Below are positions 10,720 through 59,763 of a stretch of DNA of 64,000 nucleotides, one piece after another. The notes beneath the pieces are model-generated. The model saw only the letters and a list, made by a program, of their open reading frames with translations. It was not told the DNA's origin and searched no databases. How positions within the stretch are numbered: the stretch's first letter is position 1; the number at the start of each line of letters is the position of its first letter. The translations under genes were made by a program, and so were the position numbers. This DNA comes from an uncultured Verrucomicrobia subdivision 3 bacterium (lineage in GTDB: Bacteria; Verrucomicrobiota; Verrucomicrobiia; Limisphaerales; UBA11358): assembly GCA_903865745.1 (NCBI GenBank), contig CAIPKV010000052.1, positions 1 to 64,000 of the forward strand, written 5' to 3'.

Positions 10720-10990
10720 GTACTGACGTCTATGGCTTATCCACAGACGTCTGTTTGTCACGCACAGACGTCTATAGCTCACCCACAGACGTCTGTTTGT
10801 CAGGCACGAACGTCTATAGCTCACCCACAGACGTCTGTTTGTCAGGCACGAACGTCTATGGCTGACGCACAGACGTCTGTACGCGAGACACAGACGTCTA
10901 TGGCTGACCCACGAACGTCTGTTTGTCTCGCACAAGCGTCTATGGGTGACCTACAGACGTCCTTTTGGTCCACAATGACGTCTTGATGAG
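10720..10990. repeat. 21-bp phase-locked array A (GACGTC-centred, 13 units)
   Basis: The pentamer ACGTC (once GCGTC) recurs at 10726, 10747, 10768 and then every 21 bp up to 10978: 13 units with no indel. Units alternate in two forms, ACGTCTATRGCT... and ACGTCTGTTTGTC..., giving a 42-bp higher order. Most units are centred on a palindrome, up to ACAGACGTCTGT at 10744-10755. Because 21 bp is seven codons, both strands show open frames with a 7-residue repeat; I regard these as a by-product. The array lies in the 920-bp gap between the GH51 gene and the giant gene. Confidence 0.9.
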
Positions 10991-11513
10991 CCGCCAACCC
11001 GCTCATCTTGGAGGGTCACGGAATCGGCTAAAGTGAACTACTGGCTTTAAACTGGTGGTCCTCAAACTGTCGTTGGCCATTTTAATTTATCTACCAGCCG
11101 ACGGCTTGACTTGGTTTTTTAAGGAATTCCGGACCCTTTTTGGCATGGCTGATTTGCTCAAAAAATATTTGGCGGAAATGGACAGCGAGATGTCGCACTA
11201 GTTCATGAAGCCATAGATATGATTTTTACGCCAGCATCAGCCGTGCGACATATTGTGACGTTTTGCTTAAAACGCCCCCGTTTGAAATCAATCTAAAGCG
11301 CTCGTTATTTCACCCGTGAACCCCTTTCAAATAGCTATCGCCAAAACCATCGCCTGGTTGGACGCTAACTTTGGCAGAGCGCTACAGCATCCAACGGTTG
11401 GATTGACAAACGTTACCCAGCTTCTTTGTCACGAAATTTAATTAGCAACCTTAACAAAACTGACTCCCCGAATCCCAAATTTAGTTCCCCACTCAACCCC
11501 AACCCCTAGTCTC
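10991..11513. other. Intergenic region upstream of the giant gene, no feature recognised
   Basis: About 520 bp between array A and the giant beta-repeat gene. I found no open frame of note, no tRNA-like structure, no convincing promoter boxes and no clear ribosome binding site before the ATG at 11514. The promoter of the giant gene probably lies here. Confidence 0.5.
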
Positions 11514-14500
11514 ATGAAAAACATCACCCGTCACCTCCTCACCACTGTCGTCGCCGGCTGCTCCTGGCTGGCGCTCTCAACCGTCTCCGTCTCGGCTGCC
11601 GGAACGGATACCTGGGTCGGCAACACCGACGCGAACTGGAACACGGCCGGCAACTGGACGACTGCTGGCGGCAGCACGCCGCCCGCCGCGGGTGATTCGC
11701 TGCTGTTTGGCTCGGCGGGCACCTCCGGCTCGACCTTGACCAATAATATTTCCAATCTGTCGCTGAACGGTATCACCCTGAATGGGCCGGGTGCGTTCAC
11801 CGTCAGTGGCAACGCCCTCACCTTGACGGGTGGCCTGACCAACGCTTCGACCGCCACGGAAGTTATCTCCGTGCTCTTGAGTGGCACGGGCGGCGTAGTG
11901 AATCCGGCGGGTACGGTGACGCTGGGCGGTGCGAATACCTACACCGGCAACACTGTTTTGGGTGACGGCACGGATGCCGCGGTTCTGAACCAGCCGGCGC
12001 CGACGGTTGGCGCAACCAATGTGGCGACCCCGGTTCTGTATCTGTCCTTTGACAAGGTTGCCGGCAAAACAGTCTTGAACGAAGGCAGTGGCGGGGCAGT
12101 GATGAACGGAGCGATAATGGGTACTGCTTCAATTGTCAGCGGCGGACGGCTGGGTGGAAATTGTTTGAGCGTTCCGGCACTCCTTAATTCTGGTTATGTC
12201 AAAATCAATAACCCGGTTGTGGCCATGACAGGCGCGGGTAGTTGGACGATTGGGATGTGGATCAAGACGTCAACTGCGGGAGCGGTCTATGCTTATCAAG
12301 GTGATGGAGGTTGGACCAGTGGCAACATGAGTTTTTATTTGAACGCTGGCAACACTACCTCGGGGACTCATGCCGGTGGTGTCAGTTACGCGCAGGGTTG
12401 GCAGACCGGTACAGCCGTCTGTAACGACGGCAACTGGCACTATGTGGTGATGACCCGTAATGGTTCCGCCACGGTTTTGTATGTGGACGGTAGTGTGGAT
12501 GCCTCGACCTCTAGTTGGGGTGCTGGCACGGGTGTTGGCAAGCAGTTGTGGATTGGTGCGAGCGGTGATAGCGCCGACGGTGCTGCCGGCTTGAATGGCT
12601 TGATTGATGAAGTTTCTGTTTATAACACTGCGTTGACCCTGACGCAGGTGCAATCACTTTATGCGGCGGGTACGCTCGAAGCGGGCACGATTTCGCCGGC
12701 TAGCTCGGTTTCGGTCGCCGCTGCTGCCACTTTGGATTTGTATGGTCGGGCACAGACGGTAGCTGGCTTAAGCGGTTCAGGCACGGTGGATTCGACGCTG
12801 GCCAGCGGCAAACCCGCTTTGATTGTCAACAACAGCACTACGAATGCTAGTGTCTTCAGTGGTGCTATCACCAACTCGGGTGCCACCAGTGCGCTTTCGC
12901 TCATCCAAGCGGGTACCAACAGTCTGACACTCAATGGCACGGCGGCCAATGGCTATACCGGCTCAACTATGGTTAATGGTGGCACACTCATTGAAGATTT
13001 TGCCAACGCCACTTCGGCTGCCAATCTCATTAGTAGCAGTTCGCCGCTTGTGCTCGGCGGCGGTACCCTGCAGGTCAAGCAGCAGAGTGCCATTACCACG
13101 TCGCAAACTTTTGCTGGCACCACAGTTTCTCCAGGTGCTTCGGTTGTTAACGGCACGCAGGTTGGCTCCGGGGCGGTGAATATTGCGCTCGGTGCCATCA
13201 CGCAAGTGCCCGGCGGCACGGTGGACTTCACTAATAATTCAACCGGCGCGACCACCACCACCACCAGTCCTATTGTCAACGGCATCCTTGGGGGTTGGGC
13301 GACGGTTGGAAATAACATTCCTTCCACGACATCGGGTGGTTGGGCGACCACCAATGGCAGCGGCCAAATCGTTCCATACGCGGGCTATACTACAGTTTCA
13401 GGCACTACTATATCTGCTGCGAGTGCTTCAACGCAGAACTGGATAACGGATGGTGGCACCCTTACAACCGGGGGGACTGTCAATTCGCTGATTGAGAGGG
13501 GCGGCACAGGCGATTTTATTGTCAACAACAGTATTACGCTGACCATTGCGAGCGGTGGTATTTTCATTGAGGGTGTAAACCAACGCTGGTTGGTGGCTGG
13601 TGGCAGCGCCAGCACTTTGAAATCAGGTCTGACGACGGGTGAAATGTACATTCATTCCGCCAATAATGCTTACAATGACTACGAAATCCGGCCGGTCATT
13701 GCCGACGGATCGGTTGCTACGACTGTTTATAAGGATGGTCCTGGGAATATCACGCTTGGTGGCTACGCCAAGACTTATTCGGGTGGTACGGTAGTCAATG
13801 GCGGTACGCTCCAACTTGCTCTCGGCGGTGCAACCGGTGTCATCCGTGGTACGCTGACCATTAATCCGGGCGCCACGGCTACCGCAACGGTTTTAGATGC
13901 AATCGGTTACACCACTGGAGTCACTGCCATCAACATCAATGGGGGTACATTTAATATTGGGGTTAACGCCAATAATGGTTTGTTGGCAACCGTGAATCTT
14001 ACTGGGGGGACTTTTAGTTCAACTGGCGGCGGGGCATTCAATTCAGCCGCTTTGGGGGTTAATTCATTGCCCAGTCCGATTACCTCTGTCTTCAGTGCCC
14101 CCTTCGCCATGCGCGGCGCCGGTTTGCCTATTAGTGTGGCTCAAGGCACTACAGCTAGTGGTATTGACCTCAACATTTCAGGCGCCATCGGCTATGGCTC
14201 GGGTGGCAGCGGTGGCATTACTAAAACCGGCGCGGGTACGCTAGAGCTTTCGGGTGCCAATACCTTCACGGGTAGCACCACCATCAATGCCGGGACCCTG
14301 TTCATCGGCGGTGGTGGCAAATTGGGTGGCGGAACTTATTCCGGTGCGATTGTTAACAACGGGATTCTGAACTACGGCAGCACGGCGGCACAAACCTTGT
14401 CCGGGGTCATTTCGGGAACAGGTCCGCTGATTGTGAGCGGTACCGGCATACCCGTGGTGACCGCCTCAAACACCTACACGGGTGGGACGGTCATTACTAA

Positions 14501-17500
14501 TGGCACTGAGTGGATTACGAGCGATGCCGCGTTAGGTGCGGTTCCGGGCAGTCCGGTGGTCAACCTAACCTTGAACGGCGGCACGTTGCACAACAACGTA
14601 TTGTCCGTCAACCTCGCCACCAACCGGACGATTTTACTCGGTCCGACGGGCGGTTATCTCGATTGCGGCTGGGGTGCAATCAATAACAATCCGAACACGA
14701 ATCTGACGGTCAATGGTTTGATCACCGGCACCGGCGGGTTGGGTATCAACTGGGATAACGGCAGCGTCGTCTTAAATGCGACCAACAATTATCAAGGACT
14801 AACCACCATTGGTGCGGCAGGCCCTGGTTATTATGCCGCTGCTGCGGCGAATCCGACCCTAGCCTTGGGCATTGACAACGCCTTGCCCTACGGGCCGAAC
14901 GCCAGCAATGTGGTGTTTGGAACCAGTGCGAACGCAAACTCCGTGCTCTTGAACCTGAACGGTCATAATCTCCAGATTAACGGTCTGTCGGGTAGCGCCA
15001 ATGCCATCATCAGCAACAGTGTGGCAGGCTCATACACCCTTACGTTTGGCAATAACAACGCCGGTGGCAATTATGCCGGTGTTATCGCTAACACCAATAG
15101 CACGCTGGCGCTGACCAAGATTGGCAGCGGCCTGCAGACACTCTCTGGAACCAACACCTACAATGGCAACACCACCATTTCCGGCGGCACGCTGGCACTG
15201 GGTGCGACGAGCTCGATTTCCAACTCGGCGAACATTTGGGTTGCCAGCGGAGCAATCTTTGATGTTTCGACGGTATCCGGGGGTTTTACGCTGGCCACTG
15301 GCCAGAACCTCTATGGTGGCGGCACGAACAATGGCCCCATCACAACGTCGGCTGCAGCAAACATCTATGCCGACGTGGGCGCTGGCTTTGCTACAAACAC
15401 CTTCAACAACAACCTGACCATTGCGGTCGGCTCAACCACTTACTTTAATCTGGGTACAAATTATAATGGAGCCAACGACTTCATCAGCATCAGCGGTAGC
15501 CTGGTGGACAACGGTTCGGTATCGATCAGCGCTCCGAGCACCTCGGCTAAACTAGCCACCAACAGCGATTATGTCCTGATGACAGCTGCCGGAGGTTTCT
15601 CGGGTTCGGTGTCGCCCACGCCGCTCTGGGGTGTCAAGCCGCTCAACTGGGCCAATTTCACGGTGATAACCAATGCTAACGGCGTCCTACTCCATTACAC
15701 GGCTTCTACTCCACCCATCATTGTTGCGGCCACAGCCAGCCCAACGCCGGTGACGCGTAATCAACACACTCTCATCACAGCCACGGTTGTTCAAGGTACC
15801 AGCTCTATAACGAATGCTACTCTGGATGCTAGCGTGTTTGGCCTGTCCGCGAGCATTCCGTTGGTGTTTGATTCGGCCTTAACGATTGGGCTGACCAACG
15901 TCTATACGAACAGCATTAGTATTCCGGCGAATACCGCCATCGGCGGCCCTTACGTTATGCCGGTCACGGTGGTTGATTCCGCGCCATTGACCGCTTCCGT
16001 GAACATTTCGCTGAACGTGGTGGCAACCAATCAGGTTTGGAACGGTGCCGGCCCAGATGCGAATACCGATGATAACACGAACTGGGTCAGCGGCGCGGCT
16101 CCCGGATACTTCGGTGATAGCATGGCTTTTGCCGGCAGTGTGAATACTAACCCGAACATGGATCAGAATTATACGGTGACCGGTTTGGCGTTCAGTAACA
16201 ATGCGGCTAGCTTCACCATCGGCGGGGGCAATACTTTGACCTTGTCCGGCAGCGGACCGATTGCCAACTATTCCACCAATACGCAGAATTTGAACATGAC
16301 CCTGGCGGATTCGGGAGGCGGTCTGACTGCCTCCGGCGTCGGCCCAATTGTACTGGGAACCACTGAAAGTTATACGGGTCCGACCACGGTAAGTTCAGGC
16401 ACTCTAAACGTCTCCAGTTCCGCCTCAGTGACTAGCACAGGCGTCACTACGGTGGGTAATACGGCCACTAACGCCGTACTAATCAACAATGGCGGAATGT
16501 CCCAACTCAAAATCAACGTCGGCACGGTGAGCAACGCGGTGGGTGCCATTTATCAAAATAGTTCCTACTTCTCGGAGAGTCAGGCTGGCGGTGCCACCGA
16601 CTTCCAGATTGGTAATGCCGCCGGTGCTTATGGCTACTTAAATGTCAGTGGCGGCACGGTAGGTACTTATGAACTCGGGATTGCTGGTGAATCGGGTGCC
16701 GGCAACGGCCTCGTGGATCTTTACGGCGGCACAATAAGTGACGGCGGCTGGCTGGTGATTTCACGCGTTACGGGGGCTTCGCCCCAAACCGGCGTCCTGA
16801 ATATTTTCGGAGGCACGCTTTACTATGGTAACACCGGCGGCGGCACTTTTGCCACCTGCTGGGGCAGTGGCCAAACCGCCGTCATCAACATCCTTGGCGG
16901 CTCAATCCAAAACAACTCTCTAACCACTTCCGGATTTAACTTGAACCAGAGTGGCAATGCTTCGAACACGGGCATTCTTAACCTGAATGGTGGCACCGCC
17001 CAAGCTTATAACGTGTTTGGTAGCTATGCTCAGTTAAACTTCAACGGTGGTACCTTGCAGCCGAGTGCAGCCAATGCGTCGTTTGTGACGGGCTTGGGTA
17101 GTGCGCGGATTTACAGCGGCGGCGCTACAATCAATGATAACGGCAATGCCATTACAATTAACCAGGCGCTGCTGGCTCCGACTGGCAATGGTGTCACCAC
17201 ACCCACCATTACTTCCGGTGGTGCGGGCTACGTTGCCCCGCCAATTGTCACCATCACGAATGGCGTGGGTGACACGACGGGCTCAGGGGCAACGGCGTTT
17301 GCTCAGATTGATAATTCCACCGGCAATATTACGAGCGGTCAGGTCACCAATATTATCATTACCTGCCCGGGTGTAAACTACTCGGTCACACCGACCTTCG
17401 TCTTGAGTGGTGGCGGGGCCAGCACACCAGCGGTAATCACTGGCAATGCCAACGCGGCCAATATCAGCGGCGGTCTGACCAAAACCGGAAGCACCACACT

Positions 17501-20500
17501 AACTTTAGGGGGCTCTAGCACCTATACCGGCAATACCGTTATCAATGGCGGCTCGCTCCAGTTGAGCGCGCCCGTGTTGCATCTGAGTTTTGATAATGTC
17601 AGTGGCGGCACGGTGATTAACCAGGGTAGCGGCGGCACGAATATGAATGGCACGCTAACGGGTACGGCCTCGATTGTTTCTGGCGGTCGCTTTGGCAATG
17701 CGTTGAGCATCCCGTCGGGTTTAGCGACCAATGCTTTTGTTTTGATTACTAATTCAGTCAACCCGCTTAATATCACGTCACCCAACAATAACTGGACGTT
17801 GGGGATGTGGCTTAAGACTTCTACAGCCGGTGGCGTCTATGCTTATCAGGGTTCTGGTGGCTGGAGCAGCGGTAACACCGAATTCTATCTGGAAAACGGG
17901 ACGGCGGGTGACGGGGCGGGAACGCATGCTGGCGGCGTCCGTTACGCTCAAGGCTGGCAATCAGGCACCAATGTAATTAATGATGGTAACTGGCACTTCG
18001 TTGTCATGACTTGTAATAATGGCACCAAGGCCCAGTATGTGGACGGTACCTTGGATTCGCTTGCTATCAACCAGTGGAATGGTGCCGGTAATGGCTCTGA
18101 AGTATGCATTGGTGGTACGCCGAGCGGCACTGCGGATAGCCAGATTGGCTTGAACGGTCTAATTGACGAAGTTTACATTTATAATCGCGCGCTGGGCCAG
18201 TCGGAGATTCAGCAGATATATAATAATAATAGTCCGCAGGTGCTGCCGACAAACACGCTGGTTAACGTGACATCCGGCACGTTGGATGCGGGTGGTCTTT
18301 CGCAACAGGTTGGGATGCTCACCGGATCAGGCAACGTCTTATTGGATGACAACACAGGCGCCTTGGGTGCATTGGTAGTAGGTAACGGTAGCACCAACAC
18401 CTTCAGTGGTGCCATCTCGGATACTTCTGGTGCGGGATCGCTCATCAAAGTTGGTACCGGCAAGCTGACGCTTTCCGGCGCGAACACTTATGGCGGCAGC
18501 ACAGTTATAAGCAACGGCACATTGGTCGTGAGTGGTTCCGTTGGTGCCGGCCCGGTGATTGTGGCCTCCGCTGGCACCTTGGGCGGCAGTGGCACGGTGA
18601 ATGGTTCAGTCACCGTCAGCGGTAATGTATCTCCTAGTGGCGAGGGCACATTTAGTTCACCCGGGACGACGCTCACCACGAGTAGTAATCTAACACTAGC
18701 CGCTGGCGGTATATGCAGTCTCGCGCTAAGTAGCAGTTACAACGGGGCAAATGATCAGATTATTGTAACCGGGGTCCTGACTAATAATAACCCCACTTAT
18801 ATCAGCGCTATTCACATCAGCGGTCCCAGCACGCTGGACCAGTCGGCCGACTATGTCCTGATTCAGACCTCTGGTGGGGTTGCGGGCACTTACTCATCCA
18901 CCGTGGTATGGGATGGGACCCCGCCGTCCAATGCCGCCAACTTCACCATCACTACCAACTCGAGCCAAGTGCTTTTGCACTATACGGCGACGACGCCGCC
19001 GACCGCGAGTATCTCGGCGGCACCCGCCACGGCATCTCGCAATCAGAGTGTCTTGGTAACGCTCAACGAGACCAATGGTAGTAGCGGCTACAGCAATGTG
19101 GTCCTAAATGCCAGTTCTATTGGCGCGGGCTACGTGACGCTGAATTTGAGTACTGGCAGCGGCGGCATCAATGTCTTCACCAACACAATCGCGGCCAGCG
19201 CCAGCACCTTGGCAACTACATACACTCTGGGGGCGATTGTGACAGACTCCAACGGCCTCACCGTTGGTGTGAGCTTTAGCTTGAATGTCGTGACTACGAA
19301 CGATGTGTGGAATGGTCTCGGTGCCGGCAATAATATTGCTGTTAACCTGAACTGGACCAATGGCGCTGCGCCGGGTTATGTCGGTGACAGTCTGGAATTT
19401 GCCGGCTCGACCCGGACTAGCCCGAACTTGGAAACCAATTACACTGTGACCGGTGTGACGTTTGATAATACGGCCAGCAATTTTAATATCGGCACGCTGA
19501 ACAGCAGTACGCTGGCTATTACAGCCAACGGCGTGGCCAACAACTCCGCCTACGCGCAGACCCTTAACGTGCCCGTCACCTTGAGTGCAGCGCAGACGCT
19601 CAACGCGGCCTCTGGTCCGTTGGCCTTAGGATCGAGCCTCACTAATGGCGGCTATCTGGTGACCGTCGCAGGTGTGTCTAACTCAACAGTCAATAGTATC
19701 AGCGGCGCCGGCGGGTTGACCAAGAATGGCGCTGGGATTCTAACCTTAAGTGGTGCGAGTACCTACACTGGCAACACAACAATCGGGGCGGGAACTCTCA
19801 ATCTCAGTGGTTCGCAGACGGGGGCTGGTGGACAGATGTTTGTGGGCAGCACCGCTGCCAATTCCGTGCTGCAAATCTCCGGCAGCCTGACCATGAGCAA
19901 CCTGATGGTTGGCAACGCCAGCGGCGCGGTTGGGGCTGTTTACCAGACCGGTGGTAGTGTGTCCGACGCCGTTGCAACAGCTTATGATAACAGCTGTATC
20001 GGAAACATCTTAGGCGCCTTTGGTTACTATTACGCAGGTGGGGGCACCTTTGCTTCGGCTGGTATTGCGGTCGGTGGCGAGCAGAATACTGCCAATATCA
20101 TAGTTCCTACCGGCGTGACCGGCGGTAATGGCATCCTGGATATTAATGGCAGCACAGTAAACGACAGTGGCTATCTCGTTATGTCCCGTGGTGCAACGAA
20201 TGAGACCGGCATTCTAAATGTATTCAACGGCACCCTGACATACGCTGGTGGCGGTATCGTCGCCAATTGGGGTTCCGGCAATCAGGTTTCCATCATTAAT
20301 ATTCTAGGTGGTGTCGTATCCAATACCGCGGCCGTTGGCTTCAACTTGAACCAGTCTGGCAACGTGACGAATACGGGCATTTTGAACTTGAACGGCGGCG
20401 TCGCCCGGGGAAATGTGGTGGCGGGCGCGCATGGTCAGGTCAATTTCAACGGCGGCACCTTGAAGGCCAGTGCGGCTAATGGGACATTCATGACGGGCTT

Positions 20501-23039
20501 AGGCGGTGCGCTGATTTACTCGAATGGCGCGACCATTGATAACAATGGCGTTGGCATCACCATCGGCCAGTCGCTGCAGGCTCCGGCCGGCTATGGCGTC
20601 AATTCAATCACCGTGGCGAGCGGCGGCTCGGGTTACATCGCCCCGCCCATTGTTAGCATCAGCGGTGGCGCCGGCACCGGTGCGACGGCGATTGCTCAAA
20701 TCAATCAAGCCACCGGCGTAGTCACGAACATTTTGGTGACCAGCGCTGGCAATAATTATCTCAGCTCCGATACGCTGACTGTCACCTTTGCCGGCGGCGG
20801 CGGCAGTGGTGCAGCGGCCAATGCCCCGGTGCTGGCGGCTAACGTCGGTGGCGGCTTGACCGTCAACGGTACGGGCTTGCTGACGCTCACTAGCACGAAC
20901 ACCTTTACTGGCCCGACCGTAATTAATGGCGGTACCATTCAGCTCTATAACGAGGCGGAGTTGGGAATAGTTCCCGGTTCGCCCGCGATAAACATAACCT
21001 TGAACGGCGGTGGTTTGTACAATAATAACTCCTCGCCCGTGTTCAGTGCCAACCGCACGATTTATCTTGGTACCAATGGCGGTTATCTCCAGGCTGGCTG
21101 GCAGCCGCAGGGCCGAACCTTTATCATCAACGGGTTGATTACTGGACCCGGTAGTCTGAACATCAACTGGGATGCATCGCCAATTTATTTAAACGCCACA
21201 AACACCTATCAGGGTGACACCACCATCGGCACGGCGTACGGAACCTACTATAATAACGTGGCCGCCAACCCGGTTCTGGCGTTGGGTATCGATAACGCCC
21301 TGCCTTACGGTACCAGCGCGGGCAATGTCGCGTTCGGAACCACCACAAATAACAATACGGCAACACTAAACCTAAACGGCCACAATGCACAAATCAATGG
21401 ATTGAATTCCACGGGCACCAATGCCATTGTTGATAACACGGTCGCCGGCACTACGAATGTATTGACGATTGGTAATAATAACCAAGGCGGCTTCTTTGCG
21501 GGTGTCATTCAGAACACCGGCGGTGTGATATCGCTCATCAAGACGGGTTCCGGCCTCCAGCAGCTCACCGGTACGGATAGCTATACTGGCAACACGACGG
21601 TCAATGGTGGTATTCTGGCCATTACCCAAGCCACGCTGGCCACGAACTCGACGGTCACGGTGGTCAGTGGGGCTAACTTCAGCCTGGGCTTCTCGACGAC
21701 CAATCAAGTGGCGTATCTGGTGCTGGGCGGAGTCAGCCAGGCGGCTGGCGTTTACAATAACGGCAACAGCAGCTTGATCTCGGGCTCAGGCAGCTTGCAG
21801 GTTCTGGTCGGTTCCTCTGGCTTAAGCACGAACGCCGATCTGACTTCGCTGGTCTTCAGCCCGAGTTTTGGCTTTGCGCCAGCGTTCTCGTCGAATGTGC
21901 TGACGGGCTACGCTGAAACGAATGCGTATCTGAGCACGCCGACGGTGACGGTCACGAATGCAGATCCGACAGCGACGAACACACTGATTGTCAACGGGGT
22001 TAACTTGGGGCAGTTAACCAATAGCATTGCGAGCCTCCCGCTGACCTTGGGCGTTGGCTCGACTAATGTGGTCCAGGTGCAAGTGGTCTCGCAAAGCGGC
22101 TCAGTAACCAATCTCTATGTGGTGAACGTGACCGAACAGGGACCGCCGCTGAGCACGAATGCCTATCTGACCTCATTGGTCTTTAGCCCGAGCTTGGGCT
22201 TTGCACCCGCATTCACCTCGAACATAATGACGGGCTATAATGAGACGAACGCCTATTTGAGCACGCCGACGGTGACGGTGACCAATGCGGATGCGACGGC
22301 GACGAACACGCTGATTGTGAATGGGATTAACTTGGGACAGTTGACCAACAGCATCGCCAGTGTACCGCTGACCTTGGGCGTTGGCTCGACCAACGTGGTC
22401 CAGGTGCAAGTGGTCTCGCAAAGCGGCTCAGTAACCAATCTCTATGTTGTGAACGTGACCGAACAGGGACCGCCGCTGAGCACGAATGCACTGTTGCTGT
22501 CGCTGGCTATCACGCCGGCCGGGACGTTGAATCCGACGTTTGCCTCTGGCACGTGGGTTTACAATGCGACCAACGCCTATACCAACAACCCGGTGACGGT
22601 GACGGCGACCAGCTCGAATGCGTTCGCGACGTTGCAGTTTAGCTTCAACGGAGGTGCGTATGGGGCGGTAGTAACGAACAACCTGACGTCTGGGTCAACC
22701 AGCTTGTTACTGAACCCACCGACTAACACGGTGGCGGTGCGAGTCGTCTCCCAAGACTTGTCACAGACGAACGTATACACGGTGAATGTGCTGTTGCAGC
22801 CTAGTCAGACAGTGCCGAAGCTGACGAACAACGTGAGCGCAGGGAACCTCAACTTGAGCTGGCCGGCGGATCATCTGGGCTACCGGTTGCTGGTGCAGAC
22901 GAACAACCTGAACAAGGGTGTGAGCAGTAACACGAACGACTGGGGCACGGTGGTTGGATCAACGTTAACTACGACGACGAATCTCCCAATCATCAAGGTG
23001 GGCGTAACGAACGAGTACTATCGCTTGGTATACCCTTAA
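11514..23039 (+). CDS. Giant secreted autotransporter-associated beta-strand repeat protein with two LamG and three cadherin-like domains
   Basis: 3,841 residues with a signal peptide (MKNITRHLLTTVVAGCSWLA, then 'LSTVSVSAAG'). The body is rich in Gly, Ala, Ser, Thr and Asn and carries about 14 copies of the PF12951-type motif, e.g. 'LELSGANTFTGSTTINAG', which fold as a beta-helix. Two LamG-type lectin-like domains are inserted ('PVLYLSFDKVAGKT' near residue 175, 'PVLHLSFDNVSGGT' near 2020). A long module starting 'NQVWNGAGPDAN' (~16036) recurs as 'NDVWNGLGAGNN' (~19300). Near the end are three cadherin-like (PF12733-type) units of 109 residues. It closes with a 'LNLSWPADHLGYRLLVQT...YYRLVYP' domain common at the end of secreted verrucomicrobial proteins. 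No autotransporter barrel or PEP-CTERM tail is visible, so how it is exported or anchored is unknown. Adhesion to or wrapping of glycan substrate is an inference. Confidence 0.9.
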   Translation: MKNITRHLLTTVVAGCSWLALSTVSVSAAGTDTWVGNTDANWNTAGNWTTAGGSTPPAAGDSLLFGSAGTSGSTLTNNISNLSLNGITLNGPGAFTVSGNALTLTGGLTNASTATEVISVLLSGTGGVVNPAGTVTLGGANTYTGNTVLGDGTDAAVLNQPAPTVGATNVATPVLYLSFDKVAGKTVLNEGSGGAVMNGAIMGTASIVSGGRLGGNCLSVPALLNSGYVKINNPVVAMTGAGSWTIGMWIKTSTAGAVYAYQGDGGWTSGNMSFYLNAGNTTSGTHAGGVSYAQGWQTGTAVCNDGNWHYVVMTRNGSATVLYVDGSVDASTSSWGAGTGVGKQLWIGASGDSADGAAGLNGLIDEVSVYNTALTLTQVQSLYAAGTLEAGTISPASSVSVAAAATLDLYGRAQTVAGLSGSGTVDSTLASGKPALIVNNSTTNASVFSGAITNSGATSALSLIQAGTNSLTLNGTAANGYTGSTMVNGGTLIEDFANATSAANLISSSSPLVLGGGTLQVKQQSAITTSQTFAGTTVSPGASVVNGTQVGSGAVNIALGAITQVPGGTVDFTNNSTGATTTTTSPIVNGILGGWATVGNNIPSTTSGGWATTNGSGQIVPYAGYTTVSGTTISAASASTQNWITDGGTLTTGGTVNSLIERGGTGDFIVNNSITLTIASGGIFIEGVNQRWLVAGGSASTLKSGLTTGEMYIHSANNAYNDYEIRPVIADGSVATTVYKDGPGNITLGGYAKTYSGGTVVNGGTLQLALGGATGVIRGTLTINPGATATATVLDAIGYTTGVTAININGGTFNIGVNANNGLLATVNLTGGTFSSTGGGAFNSAALGVNSLPSPITSVFSAPFAMRGAGLPISVAQGTTASGIDLNISGAIGYGSGGSGGITKTGAGTLELSGANTFTGSTTINAGTLFIGGGGKLGGGTYSGAIVNNGILNYGSTAAQTLSGVISGTGPLIVSGTGIPVVTASNTYTGGTVITNGTEWITSDAALGAVPGSPVVNLTLNGGTLHNNVLSVNLATNRTILLGPTGGYLDCGWGAINNNPNTNLTVNGLITGTGGLGINWDNGSVVLNATNNYQGLTTIGAAGPGYYAAAAANPTLALGIDNALPYGPNASNVVFGTSANANSVLLNLNGHNLQINGLSGSANAIISNSVAGSYTLTFGNNNAGGNYAGVIANTNSTLALTKIGSGLQTLSGTNTYNGNTTISGGTLALGATSSISNSANIWVASGAIFDVSTVSGGFTLATGQNLYGGGTNNGPITTSAAANIYADVGAGFATNTFNNNLTIAVGSTTYFNLGTNYNGANDFISISGSLVDNGSVSISAPSTSAKLATNSDYVLMTAAGGFSGSVSPTPLWGVKPLNWANFTVITNANGVLLHYTASTPPIIVAATASPTPVTRNQHTLITATVVQGTSSITNATLDASVFGLSASIPLVFDSALTIGLTNVYTNSISIPANTAIGGPYVMPVTVVDSAPLTASVNISLNVVATNQVWNGAGPDANTDDNTNWVSGAAPGYFGDSMAFAGSVNTNPNMDQNYTVTGLAFSNNAASFTIGGGNTLTLSGSGPIANYSTNTQNLNMTLADSGGGLTASGVGPIVLGTTESYTGPTTVSSGTLNVSSSASVTSTGVTTVGNTATNAVLINNGGMSQLKINVGTVSNAVGAIYQNSSYFSESQAGGATDFQIGNAAGAYGYLNVSGGTVGTYELGIAGESGAGNGLVDLYGGTISDGGWLVISRVTGASPQTGVLNIFGGTLYYGNTGGGTFATCWGSGQTAVINILGGSIQNNSLTTSGFNLNQSGNASNTGILNLNGGTAQAYNVFGSYAQLNFNGGTLQPSAANASFVTGLGSARIYSGGATINDNGNAITINQALLAPTGNGVTTPTITSGGAGYVAPPIVTITNGVGDTTGSGATAFAQIDNSTGNITSGQVTNIIITCPGVNYSVTPTFVLSGGGASTPAVITGNANAANISGGLTKTGSTTLTLGGSSTYTGNTVINGGSLQLSAPVLHLSFDNVSGGTVINQGSGGTNMNGTLTGTASIVSGGRFGNALSIPSGLATNAFVLITNSVNPLNITSPNNNWTLGMWLKTSTAGGVYAYQGSGGWSSGNTEFYLENGTAGDGAGTHAGGVRYAQGWQSGTNVINDGNWHFVVMTCNNGTKAQYVDGTLDSLAINQWNGAGNGSEVCIGGTPSGTADSQIGLNGLIDEVYIYNRALGQSEIQQIYNNNSPQVLPTNTLVNVTSGTLDAGGLSQQVGMLTGSGNVLLDDNTGALGALVVGNGSTNTFSGAISDTSGAGSLIKVGTGKLTLSGANTYGGSTVISNGTLVVSGSVGAGPVIVASAGTLGGSGTVNGSVTVSGNVSPSGEGTFSSPGTTLTTSSNLTLAAGGICSLALSSSYNGANDQIIVTGVLTNNNPTYISAIHISGPSTLDQSADYVLIQTSGGVAGTYSSTVVWDGTPPSNAANFTITTNSSQVLLHYTATTPPTASISAAPATASRNQSVLVTLNETNGSSGYSNVVLNASSIGAGYVTLNLSTGSGGINVFTNTIAASASTLATTYTLGAIVTDSNGLTVGVSFSLNVVTTNDVWNGLGAGNNIAVNLNWTNGAAPGYVGDSLEFAGSTRTSPNLETNYTVTGVTFDNTASNFNIGTLNSSTLAITANGVANNSAYAQTLNVPVTLSAAQTLNAASGPLALGSSLTNGGYLVTVAGVSNSTVNSISGAGGLTKNGAGILTLSGASTYTGNTTIGAGTLNLSGSQTGAGGQMFVGSTAANSVLQISGSLTMSNLMVGNASGAVGAVYQTGGSVSDAVATAYDNSCIGNILGAFGYYYAGGGTFASAGIAVGGEQNTANIIVPTGVTGGNGILDINGSTVNDSGYLVMSRGATNETGILNVFNGTLTYAGGGIVANWGSGNQVSIINILGGVVSNTAAVGFNLNQSGNVTNTGILNLNGGVARGNVVAGAHGQVNFNGGTLKASAANGTFMTGLGGALIYSNGATIDNNGVGITIGQSLQAPAGYGVNSITVASGGSGYIAPPIVSISGGAGTGATAIAQINQATGVVTNILVTSAGNNYLSSDTLTVTFAGGGGSGAAANAPVLAANVGGGLTVNGTGLLTLTSTNTFTGPTVINGGTIQLYNEAELGIVPGSPAINITLNGGGLYNNNSSPVFSANRTIYLGTNGGYLQAGWQPQGRTFIINGLITGPGSLNINWDASPIYLNATNTYQGDTTIGTAYGTYYNNVAANPVLALGIDNALPYGTSAGNVAFGTTTNNNTATLNLNGHNAQINGLNSTGTNAIVDNTVAGTTNVLTIGNNNQGGFFAGVIQNTGGVISLIKTGSGLQQLTGTDSYTGNTTVNGGILAITQATLATNSTVTVVSGANFSLGFSTTNQVAYLVLGGVSQAAGVYNNGNSSLISGSGSLQVLVGSSGLSTNADLTSLVFSPSFGFAPAFSSNVLTGYAETNAYLSTPTVTVTNADPTATNTLIVNGVNLGQLTNSIASLPLTLGVGSTNVVQVQVVSQSGSVTNLYVVNVTEQGPPLSTNAYLTSLVFSPSLGFAPAFTSNIMTGYNETNAYLSTPTVTVTNADATATNTLIVNGINLGQLTNSIASVPLTLGVGSTNVVQVQVVSQSGSVTNLYVVNVTEQGPPLSTNALLLSLAITPAGTLNPTFASGTWVYNATNAYTNNPVTVTATSSNAFATLQFSFNGGAYGAVVTNNLTSGSTSLLLNPPTNTVAVRVVSQDLSQTNVYTVNVLLQPSQTVPKLTNNVSAGNLNLSWPADHLGYRLLVQTNNLNKGVSSNTNDWGTVVGSTLTTTTNLPIIKVGVTNEYYRLVYP
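21825..22478 (+). repeat. Tandem 327-bp duplication of a cadherin-like domain
   Basis: The sequence AGCACGAA recurs at 21825, 22152 and 22479, a step of exactly 327 bp (109 codons). Units one and two are almost identical in DNA, for example through the stretch encoding 'VVQVQVVSQSGSVTNLYVVN', so this duplication is recent. A third, diverged unit ('LSTNALLLSLAITPAG') follows. Confidence 0.9.
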
Positions 23040-26750: not shown

Positions 26751-27257
26751 CGTGACACACCTTGCTGAGAAGAATCTGTAAATAATTTCCAGGTTGCTGT
26801 AAATTAGGCTGCCAAACGATTTTTTTTAAAGGATAGGGTGGATCAAAGGGAGCTGATTCGCTTAACGCGAAATAAGCAAAACTATCAGACGTCTATTCTG
26901 TATAATTTTTTCCCCTTGCCGCTCCCATTGATGGAAGGGTAGAGGTTAGGGATTAATTTTATGTGGATTTCCTTCGACTCTCAACTCATAAATCCCTCAA
27001 CGCGGCTAGTTGCCGTCAGCAAAACCAAAAAAGAGATCGATTAATCCGGCGCGTTCCATTTTTTGGTCGTCTAGCGATAAGCTTCGACATCACCACGAAG
27101 CTTATCGCGATGACCACGAAGCTTGTCGCGGAGGTCAAAAAGTGCTGAAAAGTTTATTGAAAGGGGACAGTTCGGGTCGAAATAGCCTAAAAGTATCGTA
27201 ATATTGTTAATGACGGTGCTTCCCCGACTTTCTGATTTCAAACTTAGAATTCAAAAA
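26751..27257. other. AT-rich intergenic region between convergent genes
   Basis: About 500 bp between the 3' ends of the GH51 gene and the HA-domain gene. It holds the inverted/direct repeat described at 27074 and a single copy of the array-A core, CAGACGTCTAT, at 26886-26896. Just before the HA gene, 27243-27275 is made of AATTC/AATTA-rich short repeats. I see no gene. Confidence 0.6.
27074..27137. repeat. Inverted and 21-bp direct repeat around AAGCTT (locus E)
   Basis: GCGATAAGCTTCG (27074-27086) and CGAAGCTTATCGC (27096-27108) form a perfect 13-bp inverted repeat with a 9-base loop. The right arm starts a 21-bp unit (27096-27116) that is repeated once, diverged, at 27117-27137 (CGAAGCTTGTCGC...). 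The region lies between two convergent genes. It lacks a T run, so a simple terminator role is not obvious. Confidence 0.8.
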
Positions 27258-32804: not shown

Positions 32805-33165
32805 CCCTTTTGGTTTGTTGAAAAACCCGTTTGCTTTGGTCCAACTCAACGTTGTTCTGGACCAACTCACCGTTGCGCTGGAGCAGGTGGTGAGCTTTTG
32901 AGACAGCACCCGTTGTGACCGACTGGAAACAGCCTTGCGCTGGGGCATCTCACCGTTGCGATGGAGTAAAACACCGTTGTTATGGCCCAACTCAAAGTTG
33001 TTCTGAAGCATCTCACGGTTGGTCTGAACGGGTATGCATGTGCTACGGAAGAAACACCGTTGTTCTGGAGCAACACACCGTTGCTTTGGACCAATTCACT
33101 GTTGTGATACGACAAAACACCTTTGTGATGGGCCAAAACAAAGTCTTGATGGAGCGATAAACGGG
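32805..33165. repeat. 21-bp degenerate array B (GTTG-N8-CAAC dyads, about 16 units)
   Basis: TTG anchors fall at 32831, 32852, 32873, then 32956, 32977, 32998, 33019, then 33060, 33081, 33102, 33123, stepping 21 bp inside each block. Between the blocks the phase slips by one base or so. The typical unit reads CACCGTTGTTCTGGACCAAC plus T, and its core GTTG-N8-CAAC is a dyad. It fills the gap between the DUF1549/DUF1553 gene and a decayed gene. Both strands show long open frames that only reflect the seven-codon period. Confidence 0.82.
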
Positions 33166-49315: not shown

Positions 49316-49322
49316 GCCAGCC

Positions 49323-50410: not shown

Positions 50411-50587
50411 CACGCTGCTTTATCAACGAACCGCTTAGCCACTTACCTTGCCCAGACTCGACTCTAGGTCATCAATAACTGTTCAATTATCTTCCCGCCT
50501 GCCCAAAACATCGTTGGCGCGCCATTTTTGATGGGTTTTGGCCGGTTTGACCCCATTTACCCCCGGCCAAAGGTCATCCACAACCCA

Positions 50588-50777
50588 CATTTGCCAATCC
50601 ATGAGGGGCATTTGCCGATCAACGGACCCCCATTTGCCGGTCCAGAAGAGGCATTTGCCCGTCCACGACTCACGTTTGCCTGTCCACGGAGGGCATTAGC
50701 CCGTCCATAACCCACATCAGCCGGTCCACGACCTCCATTAGCCGGTTCACGAATGGCATCAGGAGGACTCAAACGCC
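50588..50777. repeat. 21-bp degenerate array C (CATTTGCC units)
   Basis: CATTTGCC or a variant starts at 50588, 50609, 50631, 50652, 50673, 50694, 50715, 50736 and 50757: nine units, with one 22-bp step and otherwise 21-bp steps. The unit core is CATTTGCCGGTCCACGA followed by four variable bases. Some units extend to the palindrome GGCATTTGCC. It sits between two convergent genes (epimerase and FAD/Fe-S dehydrogenase), so it is not in a promoter region for either. Confidence 0.85.
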
Positions 50778-55481: not shown

Positions 55482-55503
55482 ACTCAGGTAGGCTGGTTGA
55501 ACT

Positions 55504-56064: not shown

Positions 56065-56067
56065 GGA

Positions 56068-56449: not shown

Positions 56450-56533
56450 GCGCCAAGTTTAACGGCGCGTGGGCCGTCAGTGAAAGCGGATTTTACTGAC
56501 AACCGACAAGGGACGGATTAAATTTGCTCTTCG

Positions 56534-57169: not shown

Positions 57170-57423
57170 ATTCATCCATCGAATCACAACTGCTCGACGT
57201 TCTGACATCTTTGGATGAAGCGGTGAAAACCATGGCGACTGCTAATCCCAAACCAAATCTCCTGCAGCTCTTTTCAAAGATTGACGGACTCGCCAAGCAA
57301 TTGCCGCCGGGAGCCGACCCGACGTTGCTTCATTATCTGCACAAGAAAAGCTACGAGAAGGCGCGGTTGTATTTGCAAGGGCGCGACGCAGAAAATCAAG
57401 TGGGTAACTGCCGGCACGTTTGA
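57166..57423 (+). CDS. Small hypothetical protein, coupled to the Yip1-like gene
   Basis: 85 residues; the ATG overlaps the stop of the upstream gene by 4 bp. It is mostly helical and soluble ('LLDVLTSLDEAVKTMATANP', 'LFSKIDGLAKQLPPGADPTL', 'LHYLHKKSYEKARLYLQGRD'), ending 'CRHV'. I do not recognise the family. The same pattern, a small helical protein before mnmE, suggests a conserved gene but this is not tested. Confidence 0.65.
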   Translation: MNSSIESQLLDVLTSLDEAVKTMATANPKPNLLQLFSKIDGLAKQLPPGADPTLLHYLHKKSYEKARLYLQGRDAENQVGNCRHV

Positions 57424-57445
57424 GTTTACCGGTCGTAAATCCAAA

Positions 57446-58828
57446 ATGTTTCTCGAAGACACCATTGTCGCCATTGCCACGCCACTCGGCGAAGGCGGAC
57501 TCGCCGTCGTCCGCATCTCCGGCACTAATGCGTTTGCCATTGCTGACAAATGTTTTCAACCAATTGGCAAAAGTTCGCTAAACCCCTCCGCCGCGCCGAC
57601 GCACACCATCCAGTTTGGCAAGATTGTTCGCGACGAAAAGGTCATCGACGAAGTCCTCCTCGCCGTCTTGCGCGCGCCGCGTACGTTCACGCGCGAGGAT
57701 ACCGTCGAGATTTCCTGCCACGGTGGATTGCTCCCGGCCAAGCTGGTGCTCGACACGGTGCTCGCTGCCGGGGCACGCATGGCCGAGCCCGGCGAATTCA
57801 CGAAGCGCGCCTTTCTTAATGGCCGTATTGACCTCGCGCAAGCCGAGGCCGTGGCGGATTTGATTCATTCGCGCACGGAACTCGCGCTGACCGCCGCCAA
57901 CGAACAGCTCGCCGGCAAACTTTCCCAGCGTATCAATCAATTGCGCGATGATTTGATGCTCACGCTCGCGCATGTCGAGGCGCACATTGATTTTCCGGAT
58001 GAAGATATTTCGCCGGATACGAAAGAGAACCTCTTGCAACGCCTGGAAAGCGGTATCGCCTTCATGGACGAACTGCTCCGCACCGCGAACGAAGGGCAGA
58101 TTCTCCGGCGCGGTATCCGGGCGGCCATCATCGGCCGACCGAATGCGGGCAAATCGAGTTTGCTCAACCAATTGCTCGGCCATGACCGCGCCATTGTTTC
58201 GCCGATTGCTGGCACCACGCGCGATACGATTGAAGAAACTGCGAACATTCGTGGCCTGCCGGTAATCTTCATTGATACGGCCGGGTTGCGCGAGGCGGGC
58301 GACGAGATTGAGCTAGAAGGCATTCGGCGCAGCCGCGCCACGCTCGCGTCAGCGGAATTTATATTACACGTCCTCGACGCCAGCGAACCGCTGACGGAAG
58401 CAGATAAAAACTATCTGACCGAGTTCGCCGACAAGAAAAGGATTTTGATCCTCAACAAAAGCGATCTGCCCAAGCAGTTGGAACTCCCGCCGCAACTCAA
58501 CTCTCAACCCTCAACCCTCATAACTATTTCCAGTCTGAGCGGGCAGGGGATTGAGGCGTTGAAGGATGCGATTAAGAATCTAGTCTGGGCGGGCGAGATT
58601 AAGGCCGAGATGTTGCAGGTCACCATCAACTCGCGCCATCAGGACGCGCTGAACCGCGCCCGTTTCTCGGCGCGACTTGCCACCGATGCGTTGCGCGACG
58701 ACGTCACGCTGGAACTGGTGGCGATGGATTTGCGGCTGGCCGCCAACGCCGTCGGCGAAATCGTGGGCAAGACCACTACGGAAGATTTGCTCGACTCCAT
58801 CTTCAGCGCGTTCTGCATCGGGAAGTGA
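57446..58828 (+). CDS. mnmE: tRNA modification GTPase MnmE
   Basis: 460 residues from the ATG at 57446 ('MFLEDTIVAIATPLGEGGLA'), the family's normal start; the frame is open upstream but that part overlaps the previous gene. N-terminal folate-binding domain, then the G domain inserted in helices: 'IGRPNAGKSSLLN' (G1, ~229), 'DTAGLREAGD' (G3), 'NKSDLPK' (G4). The C-terminal 'AFCIGK' is the conserved CxGK end. With MnmG it modifies the wobble uridine of some tRNAs. A 7-bp repeat (58493-58521) encodes 'LNSQPST' between G4 and G5, a loop position that tolerates insertion. Confidence 0.96.
   Translation: MFLEDTIVAIATPLGEGGLAVVRISGTNAFAIADKCFQPIGKSSLNPSAAPTHTIQFGKIVRDEKVIDEVLLAVLRAPRTFTREDTVEISCHGGLLPAKLVLDTVLAAGARMAEPGEFTKRAFLNGRIDLAQAEAVADLIHSRTELALTAANEQLAGKLSQRINQLRDDLMLTLAHVEAHIDFPDEDISPDTKENLLQRLESGIAFMDELLRTANEGQILRRGIRAAIIGRPNAGKSSLLNQLLGHDRAIVSPIAGTTRDTIEETANIRGLPVIFIDTAGLREAGDEIELEGIRRSRATLASAEFILHVLDASEPLTEADKNYLTEFADKKRILILNKSDLPKQLELPPQLNSQPSTLITISSLSGQGIEALKDAIKNLVWAGEIKAEMLQVTINSRHQDALNRARFSARLATDALRDDVTLELVAMDLRLAANAVGEIVGKTTTEDLLDSIFSAFCIGK
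58493..58521. repeat. 7-bp mini-repeat inside mnmE
   Basis: CAACTCT, CAACCCT, CAACCCT, preceded by CAACT. In frame, between the G4 and G5 motifs. Confidence 0.75.
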
Positions 58829-58843
58829 GGCGACGCTCTTGGT

Positions 58844-59149
58844 TTAGCACCACTGCTTGCCGATTCCGTCAATTCCGCTGCGTTTCAAATCGTCTGGTGT
58901 CATACAAGGGTGCAGTTGAACATCCGCTTCAAACGTCAGAAACCACGGCTCGGCCAACGCGGGAATTTTCGTTGCATCCGGAAGATCTACTACCAGCAAG
59001 GCGCTCCGATGGCCATGGTGATCCGTGAAATAAACCGCCTCAGGTTTGATTGCGTCAAGGATTTTGCCGATTTTCGCGCCGACGGTGCCGTCTTTCACAG
59101 CGGCGTTAAAAATGTGATGGGGGATGGTGACGGTCATTAGCATTCTCAT
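58844..59149 (-). CDS. Small conserved alpha/beta protein (DUF3303-like)
   Basis: 101 residues. Ferredoxin-like alpha/beta pattern: 'MTVTIPHHIFNAAVKDG', 'ILDAIKPEAVYFTDHHGHRS', 'ALLVVDLPDATKIPALAEPW' and 'DVQLHPCMTPDDLKRSG'. I have seen similar ~100-residue bacterial proteins, some grouped with DUF3303-type domains; I am not certain of the assignment and no function is known. It converges on mnmE, 16 bp away. Confidence 0.6.
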   Translation of the reverse strand: MRMLMTVTIPHHIFNAAVKDGTVGAKIGKILDAIKPEAVYFTDHHGHRSALLVVDLPDATKIPALAEPWFLTFEADVQLHPCMTPDDLKRSGIDGIGKQWC

Positions 59150-59364
59150 GATGATTCCTTGGATTTGGTTTCGTTAAATAACTCAAAGATAAAGGACGAG
59201 GCGGGTCGCCGTCTATCCCGTTTCAGACGTTTTAAGAGTGGGTAGACCATTAAATATTGTACAGCCGCTATTTTATGGCGAGTTCTATCCCAGAGAGATG
59301 GTCAATTTTCGACACTTGGAGGTCCGTTTCGACGCTTTACATCTAAAAGTACTGTTTTTTGTCG

Positions 59365-59763
59365 TTTGGTGGTCATTTTGGTCGATTCAAGTGGTTGCTA
59401 ACCGCGTTAAGTTGGCAATTTACCGCGTTCAGTTGCCAACTAAGCGTCTTCAGTAGCCAGCTAAGCACGTTCATTGTCATGCTAATTGCGTTTAGCAGCG
59501 TGCTAAACAGGTTTAGCACGACGCTGAACGGCTTTATTTGCGTGCTGAACGGGTTTAGCTGGCAACTAAATGCTTTCAGTCGCGTGCTAACGACCCCCAG
59601 CGTCGTGCTGAAAGTCTTCAGTCGCTTGCCAACCGTGTTCATTTGGCAACTGAACGCGGTAAATTTCCAACTAAACGTTCTCACTTAGCAACAAAACACG
59701 TTTACCCGCGCGGTAAAGGACTTAAGTTGGCAAGTATATGCGTTCAGTACTGGGAAACTTTGC
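59365..59763. repeat. 21-bp phase-locked array D (TTYAG-N7-CTRAA dyads, 19 units)
   Basis: Units start at 59365, 59386, 59407 and then every 21 bp to 59743: 19 units with no indel. Most follow a 17-bp dyad TTYAG-N7-CTRAA plus four spacer bases. Examples: TTTAGCAGCGTGCTAAA (59491), TTTAGCACGACGCTGAA (59512), TTTAGCTGGCAACTAAA (59554). The unit at 59701 reads TTTAC-N7-GTAAA, i.e. both arms changed together. I count the right arm CTRA in 12 of the first 14 full units after 59386 or close variants of it. Both strands are open with a Leu/Phe/Ser heptad, as expected from a symmetric seven-codon unit. It lies between the GH116-like gene's 3' end and the start of the small protein gene. Confidence 0.9.

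What the first reader, a model, noticed from the sequence alone, without database searches (positions are those of the whole stretch)
10720..59763. Four intergenic arrays with a shared 21-bp period but different consensus sequences
Arrays at 10720-10990, 32805-33165, 50588-50777 and 59365-59763 (and a short version at 27074-27137) all use a 21-bp step. Their cores differ: GACGTC, GTTG-N8-CAAC, CATTTGCC and TTYAG-N7-CTRAA. The shared feature is the period, not the sequence. 21 bp is two DNA turns, so each core would face the same side of the helix. Two loci lie between convergent genes, so a plain promoter operator does not explain them all. Candidate roles: binding platforms for architectural proteins, structured RNAs, or a class of elements that spreads by a period-preserving process. 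I know of no described family with this behaviour. This is my main candidate for an undescribed system.
Basis: partly seen in the sequence, partly recalled or inferred. Interest (0 to 1): 0.8.

Follow-up and report, generated by a model that had tools for sequence, protein, structure and literature searches.

The report
Phased palindrome arrays between bacterial genes
An uncultured Verrucomicrobiota genome carries dozens of non-coding arrays between its genes that repeat every 21 base pairs and are mostly built of palindromes, yet nearly every array uses its own sequence; this looks like an undescribed class of DNA element in which spacing and symmetry are kept while sequence drifts.

Summary
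In 1.07 Mb sampled from the window's genome, 47 loci repeat at 21 bp, 4 at 22 bp and at most 2 at any other lag from 8 to 99 that is not a multiple of these (one of the 47 is a heptamer repeat). The arrays are intergenic and non-coding, with no clear gene-orientation bias. A unit is a palindrome of about 12 bp plus a spacer, and half-unit words recur in both orientations at twice the chance rate. Register survives about 40% divergence between units; homologous arrays differ by whole units. Arrays are missing from orthologous gaps of relatives. Period-21 arrays occur in 16 genomes (12 of the genus), 12 of them with clear symmetry. Coding, reverse transcriptase, REP-transposase copy number, Rfam and whole-array hairpin selection were tested and not supported. 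Best reading: a dispersed palindromic satellite whose two-turn spacing and symmetry are held by something acting on duplex DNA, probably a symmetric protein; that last step is inferred. Seven literature searches found no description.

The parts
10720..10990 (.). Array 1: about 11-14 units of 21 bp, core ACAGACGTCTGT; alternating A/B units give a stronger 42-bp period
   Evidence: related to L090:11130-11367 (74%)
10700..10723 (.). Left boundary sequence of array 1, shared with the paralogous array on L090 (C52, about 75 kb) although the right flanks differ
   Evidence: alignment win10660-L090
27074..27137 (.). Short array of about 3 units; its right end and flank are related to the boundary of the array at L004:4717-4965
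32805..33165 (.). Array 2: degenerate 21-bp array with CAAC/GTTG arms, 1-bp register slips, weak dyad; left out of the trimmed-array tests
50577..50777 (.). Array 3: about 8-9 units, CATTTGCCGGTCCACGACC type, weak dyad, in a convergent gap; the orthologous gap is shorter and has no array in four relatives; left out of the trimmed-array tests
59365..59763 (.). Array 4: about 17 units, GTTTAGC/GCTAAAC arms, in a convergent gap; related arrays at G000 C13 and C15, weak matches at C59 and C79; no match in 48 congeners

Best explanation
The arrays are members of one class of dispersed, non-coding palindromic satellite elements. Each is a chain of half-modules of about one DNA turn in alternating orientation, so that a dyad recurs every 21 bp, two turns of B-DNA. 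SHOWN: fixed period, dyad symmetry in most arrays, register kept through heavy substitution, length differences of whole units, words shared in both orientations within an array, array-specific sequence, paralogous copies at other intergenic sites, absence from orthologous gaps of relatives, period-21 arrays in other families of the class. INFERRED: (1) copying between half-modules is blind to orientation, which homogenises each array and lets it drift to its own consensus; (2) period and symmetry are held by a factor acting on duplex DNA that reads two-turn spacing and two-fold symmetry more than base sequence, most likely a dimeric DNA-binding protein that lines up along one face of the helix. 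The protein, and the benefit to cell or element, are not identified.
For: Period: 47 loci at lag 21, 4 at 22, otherwise at most 2. Symmetry: best of 21 axes scores 0.29-0.63 and about 0.5 in most long arrays, mean of the other axes 0.20-0.28, second best 0.28-0.46; 35 of 43 long arrays reach 0.40 (filter). Palindrome of about 12 bp; in 33 even-centred arrays the central pair is complementary in 0.38 and the next in 0.54 of cases (chance about 0.25; axis chosen by this score), which does not suit unit-level hairpin loops. Register constant in 34 of 41 arrays though adjacent units are 61% identical. Whole-unit gaps only (21, 21, 21, 42, 126) inside homologous arrays. Half-unit 6-mers shared on opposite strands 1091 against 547 expected, on the same strand 2000 against 1011; 23 of 37 arrays with inverted z>2. 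Intergenic. Absent from orthologous gaps. Period-21 arrays elsewhere.
Against: No candidate protein was found or searched for systematically. One protein does not easily bind dozens of different palindromes; base preferences averaged over 21 even-centred arrays show no strong shared motif. Orientation-blind copying plus drift could give symmetry without any binding. Eight of 43 long arrays, window arrays 2 and 3 among them, do not reach 0.40 symmetry. The 22-bp arrays show that 21 is not absolute. Arrays 2 and 3 and the L071/L092/L107 family carry 1-bp slips. MFE is lower than column-shuffled controls on trimmed arrays (mean z -1.95), which a pairing-based role would also predict. Arrays were found by autocorrelation, so arrays with frequent slips would be under-detected.
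Confidence: 0.45

Rival explanations
1. Neutral or selfish satellite: palindromic units favour slippage and foldback (template-switch) copying, which homogenises arrays in both orientations; no host function and no dedicated binding protein.
For: Orientation-blind word sharing; interior units more alike than end units (0.60 against 0.54-0.56); whole-unit length differences; lineage-specific richness: about 44 per Mb in G000 against 2 palindromic arrays in about 796 kb of congeners not chosen for arrays (0 in 222 kb; 2 in 309 kb; 0 in 265 kb without contig C39); no clear position bias.
Against: No slippage mechanism known to me gives one period so sharply (47, 4, 0 for 21, 22, 20); no non-21 gaps seen inside homologous arrays despite 12-36% divergence of the aligned stretches, flanks included. 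Whether short arrays are missing is unclear: 42-bp windows at 69% identity give again 47 loci, but 14 of the 58 looser loci are under 230 bp.
Confidence: 0.3
2. RNA or single-strand structure: transcripts or single-stranded DNA of the arrays fold through word complementarity (local hairpins, a long hairpin, or multivalent pairing).
For: MFE z about -7 against dinucleotide shuffles (24 arrays, untrimmed); on 37 trimmed arrays -1.95 against column shuffles and -4.46 against column permutations that break the dyad; words and their complements are over-shared.
Against: Almost no within-unit covariation (0.543 against 0.534, combined z 2.1); the mirror-unit signal shrinks after edge trimming (mean z 1.24; 0.37 best centre with combined z 2.2, 0.20 mid centre); unit order hardly matters to MFE (z -0.41); no sense-strand preference (10 of 16); no Rfam match in the window; 21 fits B-DNA (10.5 per turn) better than A-form RNA (11 per turn; recalled).
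Confidence: 0.13
3. REP/BIME-like elements mobilised by a Y1 (RAYT) transposase.
For: Intergenic, palindromic, species-specific; G000 has two Y1_Tnp matches, one at C16:16134-16472 about 1 kb from the array at C16:17435-17733.
Against: No shared tag or consensus; Y1_Tnp copy number in G000 (2) is not raised among 49 congeners, 44 of which have matches; REPs are tens of bp as singles or spaced doublets (PMC3116915, PMC8266576, passages), not arrays at an exact 21 bp with per-locus sequence.
Confidence: 0.06
4. Operator or iteron-like arrays, each bound by a different specific protein (regulators, or decoys for phage or plasmid initiators).
For: Half-site geometry and two-turn spacing resemble operator and iteron arrays (recalled).
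Against: Would need dozens of proteins; array 4 has no phage match and array 1 no plasmid match; two exact-pattern viral scans gave five contigs, one with a coding heptad array and four with short matches.
Confidence: 0.05
5. Coding heptad repeats (7 codons = 21 bp).
For: 21 is 7 codons; a viral contig does have such a coding array (L291); 27 of 41 arrays have at least one open frame, 1.10 per array against 0.73 expected after column shuffling.
Against: 14 of 41 arrays have no open frame in any of six frames; stops 920 against 968 expected, a small deficit.
Confidence: 0.01

Closest known systems
REP / BIME / REPIN elements
   Same: Intergenic, palindromic, many copies per genome, species-specific, sometimes in tandem clusters
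   Different: Shared sequence family with a GTAG or CGTC tag and a RAYT partner; here sequence differs per array, the period is 21 bp and no copy-number link to Y1_Tnp was seen (PMC3733652, PMC8266576 passages)
CRISPR arrays
   Same: Regular palindromic repeats separated by more variable stretches
   Different: CRISPR repeats are 24-48 bp with regularly sized unique spacers (PMC3733652 passage); here the whole unit is 21 bp and palindromes vary between arrays
Plasmid or phage iterons and partition-site repeats (recalled)
   Same: Repeated sites about two helical turns apart
   Different: One consensus per replicon beside its own initiator or adaptor gene; here dozens of consensuses on the chromosome in ordinary intergenic gaps
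Bacterial minisatellites / VNTR (recalled)
   Same: Tandem repeats that change by whole units and homogenise
   Different: Periods are normally diverse; here one period dominates and most arrays are dyad-symmetric
Lobosphaera mitochondrial palindromes (LIMP)
   Same: Species-specific palindromic repeats of a single genome
   Different: Stem-loop palindromes of an alga's mitochondrion, discussed there as RNA-processing sites (PMC4524435, passages seen)

Membership tests
REP / BIME | Common palindromic sequence with GTAG or CGTC tag | tested here: not met
   Consensus strings of the arrays share no tag by inspection; no strong shared base preference around the dyad in 21 even-centred arrays
REP / BIME | Associated Y1 (RAYT) transposase | tested here: inconclusive
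   Two Y1_Tnp matches in G000, not raised against congeners; one lies about 1 kb from an array
CRISPR | Repeat of 24-48 bp with unique spacers | tested here: not met
   Whole unit of 21 bp
CRISPR | Adjacent cas genes | not tested
   No cas search was made
Iteron array | Adjacent replication initiator or partition gene | tested here: inconclusive
   Arrays 3 and 4 were scanned on both sides: epimerase, FAD oxidase, MnmE and a weak amylase-like match; genes beside the arrays outside the window were not annotated
Ordinary minisatellites | Periods not specific; no common architecture (recalled) | tested here: not met
   47 at 21, 4 at 22, otherwise at most 2 per lag; dyad symmetry in most
Coding heptad repeats | Open reading frame through the array | tested here: not met
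   14 of 41 arrays closed in all six frames; stops 920 against 968 expected; 27 of 41 have an open frame
Known structured RNA | Match to an Rfam family | tested here: not met
   0 matches in the window at gathering scores; other arrays not searched
Reverse-transcriptase-made arrays (DGR, retron-like) | Reverse transcriptase in the genome | tested here: not met
   0 RVT_1 matches in G000, a 97% complete MAG

The most novel reading that the evidence does not exclude
A chromosomal element class in which geometry is inherited and sequence is a free label: about 160 arrays per genome (extrapolated) share two-turn spacing and two-fold symmetry, recognised by one structure-reading factor, while each array's private sequence gives its locus a unique address. 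Such labelled platforms could organise the chromosome, for instance by letting identical arrays on sister or homologous chromosomes find each other.
Probability: 0.15. Interest if true: 0.95.

Novelty: categorically new. Interest (0 to 1): 0.8.

Why it matters
Repeats are normally defined by sequence. Here the shared property is a period and a symmetry, with sequence free to drift, so sequence-based repeat finders would see dozens of unrelated minisatellites and miss the class. If a factor holds the period, it would be a DNA-binding system that reads geometry rather than a motif. If no factor exists, a mutational process with a 21-bp ruler needs explaining. Both can be tested by simple scans and footprints.

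Tried and rejected
Whole-array hairpin: one search gave mean z 1.24 against unit-order shuffles, but untrimmed array ends caused most of it; on trimmed cores the signal was 0.37 (best centre, combined z 2.2) and 0.20 (mid centre). One search's local covariation (0.512 against 0.486) had the same flaw; the clean value is 0.543 against 0.534. One search's column-shuffle z (-2.5) was also untrimmed; the clean value is -1.95. The trimmed tests used 37 of 41 long arrays; the four dropped for weak symmetry or too few units were window arrays 2 and 3, L084:14033 and L090:2538.

An earlier count said register is intact in 37 of 41 arrays; recounting one search gives 34 of 41, with two of the other seven shifted only in an end window. 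The same entry calls G043 the closest relative; one search does not bear that out (FtsH fragments of 74, 95 and 93%; G005 89%, G014 88% and G009 87% over the full length).

Integron attC idea from GCCTAAC near one family: the motif is rarer than expected (32 against about 130) and pairing was almost absent. Universal boundary motif: k-mer enrichment in 74 flanks was dominated by one family. Y1 transposase or reverse transcriptase expansion in G000: not seen. Viral source: two exact-pattern scans gave five contigs; one is a coding heptad array, the others short matches whose coding state was not checked. Clean insertion boundaries with target duplications could not be read from two orthologous gaps because the gaps differ wholesale. 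One search failed on an N and was rerun.
Full report
OBSERVATION. The four arrays and the short fifth one are in the sequence as described. In the window, only lags 21, 42, 63 and one locus at 46 give 189-bp stretches with autocorrelation of 0.46 or more among lags 10-69. The window is contig 52 of an unnamed 3.63 Mb, 97% complete metagenome-assembled genome, G000 (contig length). Named relatives are MAGs titled mostly Verrucomicrobia subdivision 3, Limisphaerales or Verrucomicrobia; several isolate names suggest lakes and bogs, but the habitat of G000 itself is not known to me.

I took 20 stretches and 40 more, making with the window 61 pieces and 1,068,292 bases, about 29% of the genome. At 147-bp windows and threshold 0.5 there are 47 loci at lag 21, 4 at lag 22, and at most 2 at any other lag from 8 to 99 apart from multiples of these two. 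One of the 47 (L002) is a heptamer simple repeat. A looser setting gives 58 loci, 14 of them under 230 bp. With 42-bp windows at 69% identity the count is again 47, so well-conserved short arrays are few; degenerate short ones would be missed. The 37 trimmed long arrays have 9-23 units, median 13, after a filter that required at least 250 bp and 8 units. If the sample is typical the genome has about 160 arrays (extrapolation).

SYMMETRY. Folding arrays at 21 bp shows a palindromic core and a more variable spacer: for example GGGACRTCCC, CGGGGTATACCCCG, GGAACAGGTTCC, AAACCAGCTGGTTT, CCGTACAGGACCCTGTACGG. The best of 21 axes scores 0.29-0.63, about 0.5 in most long arrays, against 0.20-0.28 for the mean of the others and 0.28-0.46 for the second best; being a maximum of 21 it is somewhat inflated. 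Of 43 long arrays besides L002, 35 pass 0.40 (filter). In 42 arrays that passed 0.38 (38 of G000, 4 of other genomes), 33 have the chosen axis between two bases, with pairing highest 1.5-5.5 bp from it. The central pair is complementary in 0.38 and the next in 0.54 of cases (chance about 0.25), which does not suit hairpin loops.

WHAT IS CONSERVED. In 41 long arrays, register is constant along the array in 34; two more shift only in an end window; five, including window arrays 2 and 3, show an internal slip. Yet neighbouring units in 37 trimmed arrays are only 61% identical. Seven pairs of homologous arrays were aligned: inside the arrays the gaps are 21, 21, 21, 42 and 126 bp, and the other gaps (1-14 bp) fall in or next to flanks (positions judged by eye). 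Adjacent-but-one units are slightly more alike than adjacent ones (0.631 against 0.608); array 1 alternates two unit types.

WORDS IN BOTH ORIENTATIONS. Cutting each unit at the axis gives two half-units. Exact 6-mers shared between a left half and the reverse complement of a right half occur 1091 times against 547 expected after column shuffling; shared in the same orientation, 2000 against 1011. The ratios are equal (1.99, 1.98); 23 of 37 arrays exceed z=2 for inverted sharing and 27 for direct sharing. Of the window arrays, 1 (inverted z 2.6) and 4 (z 1.3) were in this test; 2 and 3 were not. So half-units appear in either orientation with equal excess. Palindromy is a property of the array's word set more than of pairing partners: within-unit covariation is nearly absent (0.543 against 0.534, combined z 2.1) and mirror-unit covariation is weak (combined z 2.2 for the best centre). 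Two earlier, stronger-looking results came from untrimmed array ends and are withdrawn.

CONTEXT. With a crude gene caller (508 genes, 62% coding, so some genes were missed), 36 of 43 long arrays lie in a called intergenic gap (80-bp tolerance); of the other seven, six lie near piece ends and one (L089:3589-3918) overlaps a called gene end. Orientation is 19 tandem, 10 divergent, 7 convergent against 107, 34, 32 for gaps of 300 bp or more. Array edges are somewhat nearer to 5' gene ends (median 197 bp, n=36) than to 3' ends (313 bp, n=32), not tested against a null. Arrays are non-coding: 14 of 41 have no open frame and stops are only slightly below expectation (920 against 968); open frames are somewhat in excess (1.10 against 0.73 per array). 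Sense and antisense strands fold better about equally often (10 of 16 for sense). No Rfam family matches the window.

DISPERSAL AND TURNOVER. BLAST of arrays with flanks shows families: L003, L099, L079, L016 and L004 share flanking DNA but fall into two arm types (CATCC/GGATG in two, GTAC in three), so arms were replaced in concert. Array 4 has related arrays on C13 and C15 and weak matches on C59 and C79 of G000 and no match in 48 congeners. The orthologous gap of array 3 is 118, 154, 213 and 468 bp in four relatives against about 700 in G000, and no lag-21 array was found in those loci; two further relatives aligned only over wider gaps. One array (L090:2538-2857) faces a longer gap in G009 (1600 against 813 bp) in which no lag-21 array was found. 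Two other arrays (L099:10017, L108:6239) face shorter, array-free gaps in G043 (426 against 1537 and 580 against 2121 bp). Gain in the G000 lineage is the simpler reading for array 3; loss elsewhere is not excluded. In stretches of congeners not chosen for arrays I found 0 in about 222 kb of 14 genomes, 2 in about 309 kb of five (G005 and G014; one weak and one coding-like lag-21 stretch in G009 not counted), and 0 in about 265 kb of G043 (without contig C39; one weak lag-21 stretch that reads like coding DNA not counted). That is 2 in about 796 kb against about 44 per Mb in G000.

DISTRIBUTION. Arrays of the same build were met in G005, G014, G017 and G043. A search with the G043 array hit 10 of 49 congeners, G043 included, and one further genome, G085 of another family, among 320 of the order. 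A search with a G017 array hit G026 of another family, 1 of 196. A class-wide search with a G026 array hit 8 of 384. Reading these loci, lag 21 or 42 is the strongest lag in G043, G017, G002, G014, G026, G054, G003, G045, G013, G085, G015, G007, G408 and G115, and in two further arrays of G000; G344 and G579 are weak (0.48), G624 shows none, and G405 was not read. With G005 and G000 this makes 16 genomes, 12 of the genus and 4 of other families, one of them (G408) outside the order. Symmetry reaches 0.40 in 12 of the 16; G054, G045, G015 and G115 score 0.36-0.39. These hits were chosen by similarity to 21-bp queries, so their period is not independent evidence, and coding was not tested in them. 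Many share TTTCCC-N6-GGGAAA-like arms, which also appear in G000 arrays (L016, L073, and in part L310), so one sequence family may be old. In the 80 named loci (1.35 Mb around one gene) no palindromic 21-bp array was seen: of six lag-21 hits, four were displayed (two heptamer repeats, two not palindromic arrays by eye), and two lag-21 and two lag-22 hits were not examined.

MECHANISM. Something holds spacing to two B-DNA turns, allows almost any sequence, and leaves words in both orientations. I favour orientation-blind copying between half-units within an array, plus a constraint on duplex DNA, most simply a symmetric protein that sits every two turns on one face. The copying step is suggested but could also be selection for matching half-sites; the protein step is inference. 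The main rival is a neutral or selfish satellite with the same copying and no protein; the sharp period and the lack of small gaps speak against it, not decisively. RNA or single-strand structure keeps some support (MFE z -1.95 against column shuffles) but lacks covariation and strand preference. REP transposase and reverse transcriptase are not expanded in G000 (2 and 0 matches), though one Y1 gene lies about 1 kb from an array.

LITERATURE. Seven searches of the open PMC library found no description of such arrays (listings read). I read passages, not whole texts, of PMC4210602, PMC4524435, PMC3116915, PMC3733652 and PMC8266576. PMC3733652 reports GTAG-type REPs in the Verrucomicrobium O. 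terrae, a different kind of repeat. Subscription papers and preprints were not searchable.

VERDICT. Real, genome-wide, not random, not filed under any known family tested. Function unknown; the mechanism above is my best inference.

Noticed in passing
L010:11870-12241, L080:14385-14772, L094:17792-18120, L103:9607-9992: Four loci with a 22-bp instead of a 21-bp period and similar palindromic words (e.g. ACCCAAGAGGGGTCTTGGGT); L094 and L103 are near copies.
   Followed up: partly
G000:C16:16134-16472 and L016:17435-17733: One of only two Y1 transposase matches in the genome lies about 1 kb from a 21-bp array.
   Followed up: no
L079:12503-12535 and short matches in many congeners: A dispersed motif (TTCGCGTATTTCGGGTATTTCGCGG-like) beside one array family; 33 of 49 genus genomes match the query somewhere, mostly at this motif.
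   Followed up: no
11514-23039: A 3841-aa open frame with 327-bp internal repeats (21825-22603) downstream of array 1, between two arabinofuranosidase-like genes.
   Followed up: no
L291:534-1481 (IMG/VR contig): A viral contig codes a heptad-repeat protein whose 21-bp DNA unit contains the palindrome GAGACGTCTC, so coding 21-bp arrays with a palindrome also exist.
   Followed up: partly
L003, L004, L016, L079, L099: Five arrays share flanks but have two different types of palindromic arms, a natural case of concerted arm replacement inside one element.
   Followed up: partly
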